A DNA stretch of 64,000 nucleotides, from assembly GCF_003363265.1 (NCBI RefSeq), contig NZ_QRBF01000005.1, positions 314,571 through 378,570 on the forward strand. The letters run 5' to 3'. Under the pieces are notes generated by a model that was given only the letters and a program-made list of their open reading frames with translations, was not told the origin of the DNA and did no database searches. Numbering within the stretch: the stretch's first letter is position 1; every line of letters starts with the position of its first letter. Position numbers and translations under genes: made by a program. Positions 19,405 through 26,331 of the stretch are shown piece after piece. The stretch is from Dyella psychrodurans (lineage in GTDB: Bacteria > Pseudomonadota > Gammaproteobacteria > Xanthomonadales > Rhodanobacteraceae).

Positions 19405-20871
19405 TCAGGTCTTGGTGCAATCGTTAAGACGCAGATGCCGCGTTTCCGGCGCCCAAAGAATCGACACCACCATACCGATAACCAGTACCGCAGCCAGCGA
19501 TAGCATCGCAGCCTGTACGCCATAGCGTGCCATGGTCATCGGCAGAACGAATACACCCACTGCCGAACCAAGGCGGCTGAATGCAATAGCAAAACCTACA
19601 CCGCACGCACGCACTTCCGTGGGGAAGCACTCGGGCGGATAAACACCCACCAGATTGGACACGGCCGACAAAGCCGCCGTGAACAACGCGAACGACGCTA
19701 TCAATGCAACGGGCAGAGAGCCGGGCAACAGGCTTAACGCAGCCAGCGACACAGCGGTAACTGCAAAGGATGAGATCAGGAATACGCGTCGTGGCAGGAT
19801 GACCGTAAGCCAAATACCAACGACTGCTCCTGCAATCAGCAAGCCATTCAACAACAGGTCGGCACGTCCATCGTTCGGTAAATTAAACAGCTGAAGGATG
19901 GTGGGCAGGAATGTGTAGATCGCAAAGTACGGAATCACGATGCAGACGAAGAACACACAATTGAACAGCGTACGTCGAATCAGATCACGGCGGAAAAGAC
20001 GGCCGAACCCGCTCGACGCGTGATGGTCGTCGCGTACGCTTGTATCGAGCATCACCTTCTTGCCGAAGTACTTTTCCACCACCGCATTCGCTTCCGCCCG
20101 GCGTCCCTTGTTGAACAGCCAGCGTGGCGATTCCGGCGTACCCATGCGCAATATCAGCACAATCAAAGCGGGAACACCGGCGGAAGCCAACACCCAGCGC
20201 CATGCGTCGGGATTCGACGAGTGTTGAACGTACTCCATGCCGATGATATTGGCGGCCACATAGCCGACGGTCCAGATCACGCTAAACGAGCCCAACAGCA
20301 AACCGCGGTGCTTTCGCGGTGAGAACTCAGCAAGAATGGCATGTCCGACGGCGAAATCGCCGCCCATGCCAATACCGAGCAACACACGTAACAAACACAG
20401 TGCCAAAGGTGTTTGCACATAGAATTGCGCGAAAGCCGTAACGGTAATGATCACAAAGCTCAGCAGGAAAATCTTCTGGCGGCCGACACGATCGGATAGA
20501 CGACCGAATAGCAAGCTTCCGAGGAAAATGCCCATCAGGGTGGAACTGCCGATCAGGCCATTCCACACGGCCGCAAGCCCGGCATCGATGCCCAGAAGAT
20601 TCAGGATGCTTTGCACAACAACGGGCAACGGTTGAAGTTGCCCGTTCATCGCCTGCATCTGATTGAGAAACGGCGTCAACGCGTAAGCGATTGTGCCTAT
20701 TGCATAACCTTCGGTCAGATGCGCACCGAAGGTAAGCCCCGCGATCTTGCAATGAAAGAAGTTCAGCGGCACATCGTCGAGGAGAACCTTACCCTCCGAC
20801 GATCCTTGTCGTTTGCCGGCATATCCGGCCAATCCTTCTGCGGTTACAGCTCGTCCATCTCCGCTGCCCAT
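19405..20871 (-). CDS. MFS transporter, sugar/organic-acid porter type
   Basis: Inner-membrane proton-coupled transporter of 488 residues with about 12 hydrophobic segments. The MFS signature GRLSDRVGRQKIFLLSF after helix 2, the ILAEFSPRKHRGLLLGSFS segment, and PESPRWLFNKGRRAEA between the halves place it in the sugar/metabolite porter group. The start at 20871 (MGSGDGRAV) has GGGAG five bases before it; a longer frame to 20919 is not supported. It is the last gene of the fae-aldo/keto reductase-aldehyde dehydrogenase operon and may import the compound they metabolise. The substrate cannot be told from sequence. Confidence 0.85.
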   Translation of the reverse strand: MGSGDGRAVTAEGLAGYAGKRQGSSEGKVLLDDVPLNFFHCKIAGLTFGAHLTEGYAIGTIAYALTPFLNQMQAMNGQLQPLPVVVQSILNLLGIDAGLAAVWNGLIGSSTLMGIFLGSLLFGRLSDRVGRQKIFLLSFVIITVTAFAQFYVQTPLALCLLRVLLGIGMGGDFAVGHAILAEFSPRKHRGLLLGSFSVIWTVGYVAANIIGMEYVQHSSNPDAWRWVLASAGVPALIVLILRMGTPESPRWLFNKGRRAEANAVVEKYFGKKVMLDTSVRDDHHASSGFGRLFRRDLIRRTLFNCVFFVCIVIPYFAIYTFLPTILQLFNLPNDGRADLLLNGLLIAGAVVGIWLTVILPRRVFLISSFAVTAVSLAALSLLPGSLPVALIASFALFTAALSAVSNLVGVYPPECFPTEVRACGVGFAIAFSRLGSAVGVFVLPMTMARYGVQAAMLSLAAVLVIGMVVSILWAPETRHLRLNDCTKT

Positions 20872-20949
20872 GTCACTCCCTTCCCTAGCATGAGCGCCGA
20901 ACGCGCCCGGGTTACGCAAACCACATGGTCGCCCGTGTCATTCGCTTCG

Positions 20950-22386
20950 TTATTTCAAACCGCCCATCATCAGGTACTTGAGTTCGACGTATTCATCGAT
21001 GCCGTACTTGGAACCTTCGCGGCCCAGACCTGACTCTTTCACACCGCCAAACGGCGCAACCTCGGTGGAGATGATTCCTTCGTTGATGCCGATCATCCCG
21101 CTCTCGATCGCTTCGGCAACGCGCCAGATGCGCTTCATGTCCTGCGTGTAGAAGTACGCGGAAAGGCCATACGGTGTGTTGTTGGCGGCGGCGATTACTT
21201 CGTCTTCCGTATCGAATTGGAAGCACGCTGCAACGGGACCGAAGGTCTCGTCCTCGGCGATCAACATGTCGTGCCTGGCGCTCGTCAAAACGGTCGGTTC
21301 GTAGAAGGTGCCGCCCAACGCATGAGGCTTGCCACCGACAAGCACCTTCGCACCTTTGCTTATCGCATCCGCGACATGGGCCTGGACCTTTTCGAGCGCA
21401 GCCTGATTGATCAGCGGCCCTTGTTCGACCTCGCCTGTCAGGCCATTACCGACCCTCAGCTGGCGAACTGCCGCAGATAGCGCCGTGGTGAAGGCATCGT
21501 AGATACCACTCTGCAAGTAGAAGCGATTGACACAAACGCAGGTTTGTCCGGTGTTCCGGAACTTCGACGCCATCGCGCCGCGCACGGCCGCATCGATATC
21601 GGCGTCGTCAAATACGATGAAGGGAGCGTTCCCGCCCAGTTCCAGCGACATTTTCTTCAAGGTATTCGCGCACTGGCTCGCCAGCAGCTTGCCGGTGCGC
21701 GTTGAACCGGTAAACGAGAGCTTGCGAACGATTTCCGACTCCGTGAGCACCTTGCCGATAACACGCGCATCGCCCGCGACAACGTTGAACACACCGGCGG
21801 GAATACCTGCCTGTTCAGCGAGCGCCGCCAGTGCAAGGGCCGATAGTGGCGTGTCTTCGGCGGGCTTGAGCACCATCGTGCAACCCGCGGCGAGTGCCGG
21901 CGCGGCCTTGCGTGTGATCATGGCGAGAGGGAAGTTCCACGGCGTGATTGCCGCGACGACACCCACGGGTTCGCGCGTTACGAGGATTTTCGAGCCGGGA
22001 AACGGGCTCGGGATCACATCGCCATAGGCGCGCTTGGCTTCTTCCGCAAACCATTCCAGGAAACTGGCGGCATAACCGACTTCTCCGCGCGCTTCAGCGA
22101 TCGGCTTGCCCTGCTCGCGCGTCAGAAGCTCCGCGAGTGATTCTTTGTGCTCAAGCATCAACTCGCCCCAGCGGCGAACTCTGATGCTGCGTTCCTTGGC
22201 AGTCAACGCACGCCAGGCGGGGAATGCCTTGGCTGCCGCAGCAACCGCTTGCTTGGCTTCCGCTTCACCGCCTCGCGCGATCTCGGCGATGATGTCGCCA
22301 GTCGCCGGATTGTGAACCGGAAACAATGTGGGGCCGGTCACCCATTTGCCGTCAATGTAGTGACCATTGCGAATCAGATCCTTCAT
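20950..22386 (-). CDS. NAD(P)-dependent aldehyde dehydrogenase, succinate-semialdehyde dehydrogenase-like
   Basis: Oxidises an aldehyde to the acid. The 478-residue protein has the ALDH landmarks ITPWNFPLAMITRK, the cofactor loop FTGSTRTGK, the general base Glu in LELGGNAPFIVF and the catalytic Cys in NTGQTCVCVNRF, then PFGGVKESGLGREGS near the end. Overall it looks most like the GabD branch. The ATG at 22386 overlaps the upstream aldo/keto reductase stop by four bases (ATGA), which implies translational coupling. In this operon it might act on an aldehyde made by the reductase or on one derived from the transported substrate; GABA catabolism is not supported by any neighbour. Confidence 0.9.
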   Translation of the reverse strand: MKDLIRNGHYIDGKWVTGPTLFPVHNPATGDIIAEIARGGEAEAKQAVAAAAKAFPAWRALTAKERSIRVRRWGELMLEHKESLAELLTREQGKPIAEARGEVGYAASFLEWFAEEAKRAYGDVIPSPFPGSKILVTREPVGVVAAITPWNFPLAMITRKAAPALAAGCTMVLKPAEDTPLSALALAALAEQAGIPAGVFNVVAGDARVIGKVLTESEIVRKLSFTGSTRTGKLLASQCANTLKKMSLELGGNAPFIVFDDADIDAAVRGAMASKFRNTGQTCVCVNRFYLQSGIYDAFTTALSAAVRQLRVGNGLTGEVEQGPLINQAALEKVQAHVADAISKGAKVLVGGKPHALGGTFYEPTVLTSARHDMLIAEDETFGPVAACFQFDTEDEVIAAANNTPYGLSAYFYTQDMKRIWRVAEAIESGMIGINEGIISTEVAPFGGVKESGLGREGSKYGIDEYVELKYLMMGGLK

Positions 22387-23420
22387 GCCGCTCTCCCCTT
22401 GCCTTGCGCAAATTCGTCACGTGGCGCGCGGGGTTCGCGCGCGATGCGTTTACCGGCTGTGTAATCGTTGATCAGATCGCATGGCGTGTAGTTGCGCTCC
22501 AGTTCGTACAGCTCTTCGTCGCCCAATTTCGTGTTCAGCGCCGCCAGGGCGCTGTCGAACTGCGCAGGTGAATCGGCGCCGACCAGCATGCTGGCGATGC
22601 CGCTCTGACCGAGCACCCACGCTTGTGCGATCTGCGCAGCAGACACACCGCGTTTCGCCGCCACGCGAGCAGCGGATGCGGCGATCTCCAGCGAAGCTTC
22701 ATCGCCATACATCTGAGCGGTGAAAAGGTCGGTCTGATTGCGCGTTGAACTCGCATCACCCGTGAGCAGGCCGCGCGCCAATGGACTGAACACCGATACA
22801 CCGATGCCTTGATCGGCACAGTAGGGGATCATTTCGCGCTCTTCCTCGCGATACGCGAGGTTGTACTGCAGCTGCATGTTGATGGGCTTGGCCCAGCCAT
22901 GGCGCTCGCACGCCTGCATGATCTTGGCGAGCTGCCACGTGTACATGGTGGAGACGCCGACGTAACGTGCCTTGCCCGAACGTACGATGCCGTTCAACGC
23001 ATCCATCGTTTCTTCGACCGGCGTGTTGACGTCGAAGTAATGCAGCATGTAGATGTCGACGTACTCCATGCCCATGCGCGAGAGCGAGCCGTCGATGCCA
23101 TCCATGATGTGCTTGCGCGAATGGCCACCCGCATTCGGATAGGCGCCCATGTCGTAACCCACCTTCGTCGTCACCACGATTTCCTCGCGACGAGTCAGGC
23201 GCCTCAGAATGCGGCCCACGACCTCTTCGCCGACACCGGTGGAATAGAAGTCCGCCAGATCGATGAAGTTGACACCGGCATCCAGCGCGTGGCGCACGAT
23301 GGGTTCGCTCTGCGCTTCGTCGAAGATCCAGGGTTTCCAGCGCGGGGTGCCCATATTCATCGTGCCCAGGCAAAGGCGCGAGACTTTCAGGCCCGATTGG
23401 CCAAGACGAACGTATTCCAT
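22383..23420 (-). CDS. aldo/keto reductase (YajO/AKR-type)
   Basis: NADPH-dependent oxidoreductase of the aldo/keto reductase superfamily, 345 residues in a TIM barrel. It starts EYVRLGQSGLKVSRLCLG. The catalytic set is visible: Asp and Tyr in NFIDLADFYS, Lys in TTKVGY and His in MLHYFD. VFSPLARGLLTG is the typical beta7 motif. The ATG at 23420 has AGGAG nine bases upstream and lies 36 bases after the fae-like stop. Similarity is greatest to the YajO/voltage-channel-beta-like group; substrate is unknown. It is the second gene of a four-gene unit. Confidence 0.9.
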   Translation of the reverse strand: MEYVRLGQSGLKVSRLCLGTMNMGTPRWKPWIFDEAQSEPIVRHALDAGVNFIDLADFYSTGVGEEVVGRILRRLTRREEIVVTTKVGYDMGAYPNAGGHSRKHIMDGIDGSLSRMGMEYVDIYMLHYFDVNTPVEETMDALNGIVRSGKARYVGVSTMYTWQLAKIMQACERHGWAKPINMQLQYNLAYREEEREMIPYCADQGIGVSVFSPLARGLLTGDASSTRNQTDLFTAQMYGDEASLEIAASAARVAAKRGVSAAQIAQAWVLGQSGIASMLVGADSPAQFDSALAALNTKLGDEELYELERNYTPCDLINDYTAGKRIAREPRAPRDEFAQGKGRAA

Positions 23421-23456
23421 GACTTGTTGCTCCTGCTTTCTTTCGCGTAGCGCGAC

Positions 23457-23975
23457 TTACGCCTGCTTGGGCGTGTAGAAGGGGTTGGATACTTCGCGCG
23501 CGGCAGCGAAGACGTCCTGGCGTGCGGGCAAACCGAGCATGGCGGCACGAATGGCGTTCTTGCACGCGCGGTAGTTGTTGTCGTAAACGGCGTCGAGATC
23601 GTCCGTGGCGGGATTGACCCAGTTGGCCGACACGATCACCCAATCGTTTTCCGCCTCGTGCGGCAGCACGCCTTCTTCCAGCGACTCGGCCACCGCCTTG
23701 GCAATGCCAGCCTGCGAAGCACCCCAGGTCGCATTGCCGTGGAAATCGCCAACGATTTGCGCCTTGTTGACGTAAAGCGTGAGTGGCTTGGTCGGAACGC
23801 CCGGTTTGGCGATGATCACGAAGGGTGCGTGACCTGCCGACGGGGTGGCCAGCGCGGTGGCAAAAGCCTGACCGGCCGGACCGTTGCGTGGGCCGACCAG
23901 CACGTTGATGTGTGCGAGGTTGACGCCAGGACCTTCAAAACCCTCGCCGATGTAAAGCTGCTTGTTGGTATCCAT
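23457..23975 (-). CDS. formaldehyde-activating enzyme (Fae) family protein
   Basis: Member of the Fae family, which in methylotrophs and methanogens speeds condensation of formaldehyde with tetrahydromethanopterin. The 172-residue protein aligns along its length with Fae: VNLAHINVLVGPRNGPAGQA at the start, PGVPTKPLTLYVNKA in the middle, then GIAKAVAESLEEGVLP and NNYRACKNAIRAA. The catalytic histidine falls at His22 (LAHIN), the same position as in studied Fae. No tetrahydromethanopterin gene is nearby, so the true cofactor or substrate may differ. It heads a unit with an aldo/keto reductase, an aldehyde dehydrogenase and an MFS transporter. A promoter-like element lies about 210 bases upstream; the ribosome site is weak. 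Confidence 0.85.
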   Translation of the reverse strand: MDTNKQLYIGEGFEGPGVNLAHINVLVGPRNGPAGQAFATALATPSAGHAPFVIIAKPGVPTKPLTLYVNKAQIVGDFHGNATWGASQAGIAKAVAESLEEGVLPHEAENDWVIVSANWVNPATDDLDAVYDNNYRACKNAIRAAMLGLPARQDVFAAAREVSNPFYTPKQA

Positions 23976-24191
23976 CTATCTTTTCGCCGTGCCGCAAATG
24001 AAGTGAAGCACCGATTGTGCAGTTCACGCGACAGACAAAAGAGTCGATGTCTCCTGATACAGGCATGAGGAAAATTCGGCAACGTTCGTGGATCGATTCC
24101 TACACAACGCGATGGACCGCATCGCAATGCCACAGAACGCCTCCGACAGTCACATCGAGGCGAAGGCTGGTCCTCCTGAGTTAGCCCGGCA

Positions 24192-24219
24192 GTTTTAGGA
24201 CAGTTACGACTGTCAGCAA
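24192..24219 (-). promoter_or_regulatory. candidate promoter with palindromic operator for the fae-type operon
   Basis: On the minus strand TTGCTG (24219-24214) and TAAAAC (24197-24192) are 16 bases apart. The spacer and -35 edge hold a perfect inverted repeat GACAGT-tacg-ACTGTC at 24199-24214. It lies 217 bases before the fae start and 47 bases beyond the cpxA stop. No regulator gene for it is identified. Nothing else is recognised in the 290-base gap. Confidence 0.4.
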
Positions 24220-24265: not shown

Positions 24266-25639
24266 TCAGGCAGCTTCGACCGCAGGCAACTGCATAGTGA
24301 CCTCCAGGCCGCCGTCTTCGCCATTGCGTGCGACGACGCTACCGTCGTGCACCTGCATGACGCGGTGCACGATAGCCAACCCAAGTCCATGTCCGGCTGC
24401 ATGGGCAGCATTCGTACCGCGATAGAACGGCCTGAATACCGCCTCCAGCTCATCGGATGGCACACCCGGCCCATGATCGCGAACACATACGCGAGCCTGG
24501 TTTTGCTGGCTGTCGACGATTACGTCGACACGACCGTTGTCCGGACTGAACTTGACGGCGTTGGCAATGACGTTGTCCAGCGCGCGTTCCAGCAGGACAC
24601 CGCTGCCGTGCACGATCACAGGATGTCCATTGGACATGTGAAACTGAATGCCGCGTGCCTGTGCCTCGACATGCGCGGCATCGACACGCTCCTTGACGAG
24701 TTCGGCCAGATCCACTGCATCGCGCTCCATGCCCGGCAAGCCGCCTTCGAGTCGGGAAAGCGCGAGCATTTCCGTCGTCATGCGGTCCATGCGTGCGATC
24801 TCATGCTCCGCGCGCCGGAAATGCTCGGATGCTTTTTCCCGGTCGCCGCTATGTTGCGCCAGATCCAGAATCAGGTGCAGGCGCGCCAGCGGCGAACGCA
24901 GTTCGTGCGAGAGATCCTGCAGCACGCCGCGCTCGTGCGTCACCAGCAGCTCGATGCGCTCGGCCATGGTGTTGAAATCACGCGCGAGCTGGCCGAGCTC
25001 ATCGTGTGCATCGCTCCATTGCCTGTCGACGCGCGTGGCGAACTCGCCGGCAGCCATTTTTCGGGTGGCGCCACGCATGGCTTCGATCGGGCGCGACACG
25101 CTGCGGGCCACCCACCAACCAATACCACCGATAAGCAGCAGCGAAAGCACCAGCTGAACGCCGAGCAAAATTTTCTCTCGCATGTGACGCGGGATGCGCG
25201 AGCGCGAATTGCTCATGGCAACGAGCTGTCGCGTATGACCGTCGGCACCCGTTACCTGCTGCACGGCGATGTAGAACCCCGGAAAAGGTCTCAACTCGAT
25301 GTTATGGCCCGCGTTGAGCCATCCCGGCAACGCGTCGCGCAAATTGCCCGGCAGGCGAATGTCACGCAGGGGCTGACCGTTTTCGTACAGCGTGGCATCG
25401 ATCCCTTCGCTGCGCTCTTGTTGAATCCACGCATCCAGGCCGTCGGCGCCGCCGTTGTCGTAAGCGTCTTCGGCCGATTGCGCGATCGCGGTCCAGTTGA
25501 TGTCCTGTTCCGTCGAAAAAGCAATGAACCGGGTTGTCAGCCAGCTGCTCGATACCAGCACCAGCAGATTGGCGATGCAGAAAAAGATCAGCAACCGCCA
25601 GAACAAGGGGCTGCGGAAGGGACTCTTGAACGAGTTCAT
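24266..25639 (-). CDS. cpxA: CpxA-type sensor histidine kinase
   Basis: Inner-membrane sensor of envelope stress that phosphorylates the CpxR partner. The 457-residue protein has a transmembrane helix near 12-33 (WRLLIFFCIANLLVLV), a periplasmic domain, a second helix near 165-187 (LVLSLLLIGGIGWWVA), a HAMP linker, the phosphoacceptor His in LQDLSHELRSPLARLHL, and the ATP-binding boxes NVIANAVKFSP, DHGPGVP and GHGLGLAIV. The ATG at 25639 overlaps the cpxR stop by four bases; the open frame running on to 26020 is a shadow of cpxR. The family call rests on the CpxR-type box and the Spy-like gene next door as much as on sequence. Confidence 0.85.
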   Translation of the reverse strand: MNSFKSPFRSPLFWRLLIFFCIANLLVLVSSSWLTTRFIAFSTEQDINWTAIAQSAEDAYDNGGADGLDAWIQQERSEGIDATLYENGQPLRDIRLPGNLRDALPGWLNAGHNIELRPFPGFYIAVQQVTGADGHTRQLVAMSNSRSRIPRHMREKILLGVQLVLSLLLIGGIGWWVARSVSRPIEAMRGATRKMAAGEFATRVDRQWSDAHDELGQLARDFNTMAERIELLVTHERGVLQDLSHELRSPLARLHLILDLAQHSGDREKASEHFRRAEHEIARMDRMTTEMLALSRLEGGLPGMERDAVDLAELVKERVDAAHVEAQARGIQFHMSNGHPVIVHGSGVLLERALDNVIANAVKFSPDNGRVDVIVDSQQNQARVCVRDHGPGVPSDELEAVFRPFYRGTNAAHAAGHGLGLAIVHRVMQVHDGSVVARNGEDGGLEVTMQLPAVEAA

Positions 25640-26331
25640 GCCTGCAACCCACCGTTGGCCAGCAGCACATAGCCGGCGCCGCGCACGGAATCGATGCGCG
25701 GCGATTGCGGCGATGCCTCGGCCAGCTTGTGCCGCAGGCGGCTGACGTGTACATCGATGCTGCGATCGAAGCGCTCCAGTTCGCGGCCCAGGGCAATGCG
25801 TGTCAGCGACGTTTTGTCGATGACTTCTCCCGCGCGTTGGACGAGGATCAACAGCAGGGCGAATTCGGCCCCCGTGAGATTGAGTTCCTGCTCGCCGGCA
25901 TACGCGCGCCGCTCTCCCGGCAACAGGCGCAGCACACCTGCGTTGATCACGCCGACAGCCTCGACCGTGTGACGTCGCAACTGTGCGCGCACGCGCGCAA
26001 GCAATTCGCGTGGCAGGCAAGGTTTGGACAAATAGTCATCCGCGCCAAGCTCCAGACCCACCACTCTGTCCACAGGCTCGCCACGACCGGACAGCATGAT
26101 CACCGGCAGGCGATGCTGCGCGCGCAATTCGCGCAACGTATCCAGGCCGTTACGGCCCGGCATCATCACATCGAGTATCAGCAGATCGGGGCGCGTGGCG
26201 GCATCGCGCAACTGCGCGAGCACTGCCTCGCCGTCGTGCACCACATCCACCTGCAATCCTTCGCGACGCAGGTATTCGGCCAGCAGGGCGCACAGTTCGC
26301 GATCGTCATCGCCAATCAATATTCGGGACAT
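25636..26331 (-). CDS. cpxR: CpxR-type OmpR-family response regulator
   Basis: Two-component response regulator of 231 residues. The receiver domain has the acidic pocket GDDDRE, phosphoacceptor Asp54 in LLILDVMMPGRNG, and Lys in YLSKPCLPRELL. From about residue 130 a winged-helix DNA-binding domain of the OmpR type follows (LNLTGAEFALLLILVQRAGE, RSIDVHVSRLRHKL, VRGAGYVLL). It overlaps cpxA by four bases and is divergent from a Spy/CpxP-like gene. A perfect GTAAA-N5-GTAAA element lies 90 bases upstream, so the operon is probably autoregulated. Confidence 0.88.
   Translation of the reverse strand: MSRILIGDDDRELCALLAEYLRREGLQVDVVHDGEAVLAQLRDAATRPDLLILDVMMPGRNGLDTLRELRAQHRLPVIMLSGRGEPVDRVVGLELGADDYLSKPCLPRELLARVRAQLRRHTVEAVGVINAGVLRLLPGERRAYAGEQELNLTGAEFALLLILVQRAGEVIDKTSLTRIALGRELERFDRSIDVHVSRLRHKLAEASPQSPRIDSVRGAGYVLLANGGLQA

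What the first reader, a model, noticed from the sequence alone, without database searches (positions are those of the whole stretch)
19405..24219. Formaldehyde-activating-enzyme homologue heads an aldo/keto reductase-aldehyde dehydrogenase-MFS operon
Fae is known from methylotrophs and methanogens that use tetrahydromethanopterin. Here a full-length Fae-like protein with the catalytic His at position 22 leads three genes in a tight unit (4-base overlap between reductase and dehydrogenase) with a transporter, and no tetrahydromethanopterin gene is near. This may be a route for detoxifying or using formaldehyde or another aldehyde that does not use the classical cofactor, or a Fae that has taken a new substrate.
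Basis: partly seen in the sequence, partly recalled or inferred. Interest (0 to 1): 0.7.

Follow-up and report, generated by a model that had tools for sequence, protein, structure and literature searches.

The report
Fae-like enzyme in methanopterin-free catabolic operon
A soil bacterium carries a relative of the formaldehyde-activating enzyme of methylotrophs without the usual partner pathway, in a four-gene operon shared by distant bacteria that tends to occur together with a second set of genes resembling a sugar-acid or polyol breakdown pathway, so this enzyme may do a new job there.

Summary
The operon is real: fae (172 aa, His22), aldo/keto reductase, SSADH-type aldehyde dehydrogenase, MFS transporter; minus strand; 4-base akr/aldh overlap. 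The window's genome (genus Dyella, 99.95% complete) has no match for two hallmark tetrahydromethanopterin enzymes (MCH, FTR); 25 of 39 searched carrier genomes also lack MCH. The protein keeps the Fae fold but forms its own clade, with 31 conserved positions changed. fae-akr-aldh is kept, in order, in 78 of 80 relatives; Fae is the best conserved of the four proteins between Dyella and Burkholderiaceae. New here: a second operon (porin, AldA-type dehydrogenase, MFS, enolase-superfamily dehydratase-like protein, GMC oxidoreductase) co-occurs with it: 17/22 fae-positive versus 0/226 fae-negative genomes of one family (taken to be Pseudomonadaceae), 7/9 versus 1/7 in the genus. It lies near fae in several lineages and on another contig in this genome. 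Best reading: an H4MPT-independent Fae-family enzyme in a mobile catabolic pathway for a hydroxylated acid or polyol, rather than a plain formaldehyde detoxification unit (the genome also has glutathione-dependent formaldehyde dehydrogenase). Substrate and reaction are unknown, and some carriers lack the second operon's dehydratase. A 2019 genome paper lists such genes together in one Pseudomonas island, by annotation only.

The parts
23457..23975 (-). fae-like gene, 172 aa, Fae fold, His22 present
22383..23420 (-). aldo/keto reductase, 345 aa (best solved relative DepB, 8hwn, E 7.5e-59)
20950..22386 (-). SSADH-type aldehyde dehydrogenase, 478 aa (TIGR01780 709.5 bits, cut-off 646.35)
19405..20871 (-). 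MFS transporter (PF00083; distant matches to aromatic-acid symporters and SLC22 carriers); the ORF can start at TTG 20919
24037..24072 (-). upstream block conserved between Dyella and Burkholderiaceae, 62-97 bases before the fae start; probable operator or promoter element (function inferred)

Best explanation
The operon is half of a horizontally mobile peripheral catabolic pathway. Operon 2 (GMC oxidoreductase, AldA-type aldehyde dehydrogenase, enolase-superfamily dehydratase-like protein, MFS, porin; on contig 15 in this genome) would oxidise an alcohol group to an acid and dehydrate it to a keto acid. The Fae-like protein, without H4MPT, would then act as a lyase or hydro-lyase on a small carbonyl intermediate, and the reductase and the SSADH-type dehydrogenase would bring the resulting aldehyde to a C4 or C5 dicarboxylate; the MFS would import substrate. 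Shown: gene content, conservation, absence of MCH and FTR, statistical and physical association of the two operons, Fae fold in the model. Inferred: order of steps, substrate class, direction of transport, and the Fae reaction (that specific step: about 0.3).
For: No MCH or FTR in own genome; 25 of 39 carrier genomes without MCH. fae-akr-aldh covered over 80% in the same order in 78 of 80 loci, 70 also with mfs. Dehydratase-like gene in 17 of 22 fae+ and 0 of 226 fae- genomes of family f7, Fisher 3.2e-22; 7 of 9 fae+ versus 1 of 7 fae- in the genus, p 0.04; 36 of 44 carriers reached by handle (three of them Dyella already counted; no fae- control). On one contig 5-30 kb from fae in 15 of those 17; at least one of ALDH2, MFS2, dehydratase-like, GMC inside 17 of 80 named loci. 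Operon 2 present in own genome, dehydratase-like gene 90% identical to the query. Own clade and changed conserved positions. L139 has akr-fae next to another enolase-superfamily gene.
Against: The dehydratase-like gene is absent from 5 of 22, 2 of 9 and 8 of 44 carriers, and present in 1 of 7 fae- Dyella, so neither needs the other in every genome. Relatedness of genomes was not corrected for, so p-values overstate. The fae upstream block was not found at operon 2. S. clavuligerus has a Fae relative with a betaine-type ABC transporter and no dehydratase in the 16.5 kb seen. 14 of 39 carriers do have MCH. No assay, growth or expression data were found.
Confidence: 0.55

Rival explanations
1. 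Formaldehyde, released inside the pathway or coming from outside, is the substrate: Fae captures it on a carrier other than H4MPT, and the dehydrogenase or reductase removes the product.
For: Fae fold and His22 kept; partners of aldehyde-active families.
Against: FrmA-type formaldehyde dehydrogenase present in own genome; the ALDH is of SSADH type; the operon tracks an enolase-superfamily gene; 31 positions conserved in both sets differ from other Fae rows.
Confidence: 0.25
2. Detoxification of a reactive aldehyde or of a plant or fungal toxin: AKR and ALDH inactivate it, the MFS exports it, Fae binds it.
For: Best solved relative of the AKR is DepB, and of the operon-2 GMC protein a chloramphenicol-inactivating oxidoreductase; PMC6372532 labels a similar island 'Aldehyde Detoxification; D-gluconate and ketogluconate metabolism' (passages seen).
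Against: A porin, two MFS proteins and a dehydratase-like protein look like uptake and catabolism; the structural matches are at superfamily level.
Confidence: 0.12
3. Classical H4MPT-dependent Fae using H4MPT made by genes that were missed.
For: 14 of 39 carriers have MCH.
Against: No MCH or FTR in a 99.95% complete genome; MCH not found in 25 of 39 carriers; separate clade from canonical-type Fae.
Confidence: 0.03

Closest known systems
Fae of Methylobacterium extorquens AM1 (PDB 1Y5Y, 1Y60)
   Different: 28-29% identity in the structural alignments; 'QMFGPAQ' is 'ATWGASQ', D24 is N, 'GVFIHW' is 'ANWVNP'; no MCH or FTR in the window's genome.
Fae2/Fae3 paralogues of methylotrophs (Methyloversatilis, PMC5023235, abstract and passages seen)
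   Same: Fae homologues without a known reaction; fae2, fae3 and double deletions grew like wild type on methanol and methylamine.
   Different: They live beside an H4MPT pathway. Seven paralogue-like rows in my tree form a separate group (100/99); that these are Fae2/Fae3 is my inference.
Island RGP103 of Pseudomonas aeruginosa CR1 (PMC6372532, passages seen)
   Same: 14,440 bp with formaldehyde activating enzyme, aldehyde dehydrogenase, aldo/keto reductase, gluconate dehydratase and choline-degradation genes; taken by its authors as transferred (87-93% similarity to P. citronellolis). Probably this gene set.
   Different: Annotation by name only in the passages seen; no pathway and no test.
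Enolase-superfamily structure 4E4U (and 4E5T, 3T4W, 3RCY, 4J3Z)
   Same: The operon-2 protein of L182, 90% identical to the Dyella copy, matches 4E4U at E 1.2e-246.
   Different: The PDB molecule names give only the superfamily; no paper with these codes was found.

Membership tests
Fae (PF08714, TIGR03126) | Sequence score above the curated cut-off | tested here: met
   167.6 vs 27 bits; 143.5 vs 118.05 bits
Fae (PF08714, TIGR03126) | Fae fold | tested here: met
Fae (PF08714, TIGR03126) | Catalytic His22 (role recalled) | tested here: met
   H in 99% of 109 clade rows; in the other 26 rows 73%, the rest gaps or other letters (rows are local alignments, 7 of the 26 paralogue-like)
Fae (PF08714, TIGR03126) | H4MPT-binding residues | tested here: inconclusive
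   31 positions conserved in the clade and in the other rows carry different letters, others such as K63, T66, K71, Q88 are shared; which of them touch H4MPT was not tested
Fae (PF08714, TIGR03126) | Condensation of formaldehyde with H4MPT | not testable with these tools
   Needs an enzyme assay
H4MPT-linked formaldehyde oxidation pathway | MCH (PF02289) in the genome | tested here: not met
   No match in own genome; the control search rang in three archaea
H4MPT-linked formaldehyde oxidation pathway | FTR (PF01913) in the genome | tested here: not met
   No match in own genome; the control search rang in two archaea
H4MPT-linked formaldehyde oxidation pathway | H4MPT biosynthesis and MtdB genes | not tested
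Oxidative (Weimberg-type) sugar-acid pathway | Sugar-acid dehydratase plus semialdehyde dehydrogenase | tested here: inconclusive
   The L182 enolase-superfamily protein is below the cut-off of every named dehydratase model listed (best galactonate dehydratase 260.1 vs 311); the window's ALDH is above the SSADH cut-off
Oxidative (Weimberg-type) sugar-acid pathway | A known keto-deoxy-acid dehydratase or aldolase | not tested
   None noticed on reading the ORFs of the two operons; no family search was made

The most novel reading that the evidence does not exclude
The Fae fold has been recruited as a lyase or dehydratase in an undescribed catabolic pathway that also gives a role to an enolase-superfamily group with solved but unassigned structures (4E4U), for example as the missing second dehydratase or as a formaldehyde-releasing C-C lyase acting on a keto acid.
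Probability: 0.35. Interest if true: 0.75.

Novelty: new variant of a known kind. Interest (0 to 1): 0.57.

Why it matters
fae is used as a marker gene in surveys of methanol users (PMC3763247, one passage seen). This clade passes the NCBI equivalog model for Fae, and the Caballeronia grimmiae copy is annotated 'formaldehyde-activating enzyme', although carriers such as this Dyella lack MCH and FTR; the label may therefore mislead. The link to a second operon gives a concrete pathway hypothesis that growth tests of simple deletion mutants can decide, and it could assign a function to an enolase-superfamily group known from structures only.

Tried and rejected
Tried without gain: ten paper searches gave no study of this clade in the listings; in PMC11264596, PMC8343143, PMC5209427 and PMC3425912 (passages seen) the 'formaldehyde-activating' gene is the glutathione-dependent Gfa. 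The fae upstream block was sought at operon 2 and not found. The class of G224 (taken to be Alphaproteobacteria) is nearly free of the clade: 1 of 385 genomes at E 1e-25 with the Ensifer protein. Foldseek lists IGPD (4lpf) only at E 0.05; no weight put on it. Two plasmid searches meant to name the family of G342 did not do so.

Considered and rejected: relic gene (85-91% identity between Dyella and Burkholderiaceae); the CpxR/CpxA-like genes upstream as pathway parts (beside fae in the Dyella loci seen; in Burkholderiaceae loci only weak response-regulator matches some kb away). I first took a C-terminal YTPK tail as special to the clade; it is dropped because the compared rows are local alignments cut at their ends.
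Full report
Observation. The window holds, on the minus strand, fae (23457-23975), akr (22383-23420), aldh (20950-22386) and mfs (19405-20919, likely start 20871). Pfam gives PF08714 (167.6 bits), PF00248, PF00171 and PF00083; NCBIfam gives TIGR03126 at 143.5 bits over a cut-off of 118.05 and SSADH (TIGR01780) at 709.5 over 646.35. akr and aldh overlap by four bases. Motifs expected for a working reductase and aldehyde dehydrogenase are present (motifs recalled).

No sign of the methanopterin pathway. In the window's assembly (99.95% complete, 16 contigs) there is one Fae, no MCH and no FTR; the controls rang in three and two archaea. Biosynthesis genes and MtdB were not searched. The genome has a glutathione-dependent formaldehyde dehydrogenase (739.5 bits, cut-off 543.95).

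Distribution. In 197 genomes of the same family 9 carry this Fae, all in the window's genus (9 of its 16). A scan of genome contigs found 213 relatives and kept the best 80: 75 are titled Burkholderiaceae, 5 belong to the Dyella genus (two of these under other titles). In 78 of 80, tblastn covers over 80% of akr and aldh in the order fae-akr-aldh; 70 also have mfs; L063 and L098 fail, and some mfs misses are contig ends. In 398 genomes over the phylum, 22 have a Fae match at 1e-5, and 6, own included, are of this clade at 65% identity or more. In 248 genomes of family f7, taken from gene content to be Pseudomonadaceae but not named by the tool, 22 carry it. One genome (G361) has mfs-fae-akr-aldh between glnS and nagE; its 20 kb match the E. 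coli glnS-nagE region at 81% identity over 70%, so it is an enterobacterium or close kin with the operon as an extra. Identity to the window's proteins in Burkholderiaceae is about 85-91% for Fae, 82-88% AKR, 74-80% ALDH and 59-69% MFS, partial copies apart: Fae is the most constrained.

The second operon. Near the fae operon of family f7 genomes a second gene set recurs: porin, LysR, AldA-type aldehyde dehydrogenase, MFS, enolase-superfamily protein and GMC oxidoreductase. In L182 the dehydrogenase passes PRK10090 (527.2 over 500), the enolase-superfamily protein is closest to galactonate dehydratase (260.1, cut-off 311), the GMC protein to choline dehydrogenase (579.3, cut-off 605). In the 80 named loci, which reach at most 10 kb from fae, LysR2 is inside 19, ALDH2 12, MFS2 9, the dehydratase-like gene 9, GMC 7; 17 hold at least one of the last four. 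They are Burkholderia, Caballeronia and Ralstonia. In L069, L079 and L087 no mfs of operon 1 is found and operon-2 genes follow aldh, LysR genes between. In this window's genome porin, ALDH2, MFS2, the dehydratase-like gene (90% identity) and GMC stand together on contig 15.

Co-occurrence. In the genus 7 of 9 fae-positive and 1 of 7 fae-negative genomes have the dehydratase-like gene (p 0.04). In family f7 it is in 17 of 22 fae-positive and 0 of 226 fae-negative genomes (same 248-genome draw, thresholds 1e-25 and 1e-150; p 3.2e-22); in 15 of the 17 both lie on one contig, 5-30 kb apart, in 2 on different contigs. Of 44 carriers reached by handle 36 have it; three are Dyella counted above, and there is no fae-negative control. 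Kinship was not corrected for. Against: 5, 2 and 8 carriers lack it, and one fae-negative Dyella has it.

Other contexts. Ensifer adhaerens has akr-fae-aldh, a LysR gene and a peptide-type ABC transporter. Four of the 21 family f7 genomes fetched have that transporter near fae. Streptomyces clavuligerus has a glycine-betaine type ABC transporter, a Fae relative (49%), a 3-hydroxyisobutyrate-dehydrogenase-like protein and SSADH. Fae plus a reductase or dehydrogenase plus an aldehyde or alcohol dehydrogenase looks like the stable core; the transporter changes.

Regulation. A block 62-97 bases upstream of fae (24037-24072) is conserved: 81 of 87 distinct upstream regions of close relatives hold an 18-base core with at most 6 mismatches, against 1, 2, 5, 3 and 3 of 87 in five single-base shuffles and 12 on the other strand. 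A weight matrix from 31 thinned sites scores 31.7 bits there and 7.3 at the next best place of the window; the window's own region was among the sites from which it was drawn. In the eight Dyella operon-2 loci the best score is 13.2, so no shared operator was found.

Literature. Ten paper searches (listed under Tried and rejected) showed no study of this clade. PMC6372532 (passages seen) lists formaldehyde activating enzyme, ALDH, AKR, gluconate dehydratase and choline degradation in one 14.4 kb island of P. aeruginosa CR1 and takes it as transferred. PMC5023235 (abstract and passages seen) reports no growth defect of fae2 and fae3 deletions on C1 compounds.

Interpretation. I commit to an H4MPT-independent Fae-family enzyme in a two-operon peripheral catabolic pathway (0.55), most likely acting on a small carbonyl intermediate downstream of the dehydratase-like enzyme (that step about 0.3). 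Substrate, order of steps and reaction are inference.

Noticed in passing
L195:9311-10525 (own genome, contig 15) and L182:16223-17446: The enolase-superfamily protein reads FGTHG where I recall an Asp metal ligand (D-x-H/N) in this superfamily; EEP, GER and a His are kept. The relative in L139 has DCN there.
   Followed up: partly
L181:12043-14205: In one family f7 genome an M24 peptidase (DddP-like, 317.8 bits, below its cut-off of 600) and a HalD-like oxygenase lie upstream of the ABC transporter genes; in L182 only a remnant-like ORF of the M24 gene is seen.
   Followed up: partly
L100:7968-11787: Streptomyces clavuligerus plasmid: Fae relative in a betaine-type ABC transporter operon, with an NRPS/PKS gene some 8 kb away.
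   Followed up: partly
window 24266-26331: CpxR/CpxA-like two-component genes upstream on the same strand; in other Dyella loci the CpxR is 89-95% but the CpxA only 39-46% identical.
   Followed up: partly
window 19405-20919: mfs has a lower G+C (0.556) than the window (0.624) and the lowest conservation in the operon.
   Followed up: no
L134:5435-14805: Between glnS and nagE of an enterobacterial relative the operon mfs-fae-akr-aldh plus a LysR gene is extra compared with E. coli, whose matching stretch is about 5.6 kb shorter.
   Followed up: partly
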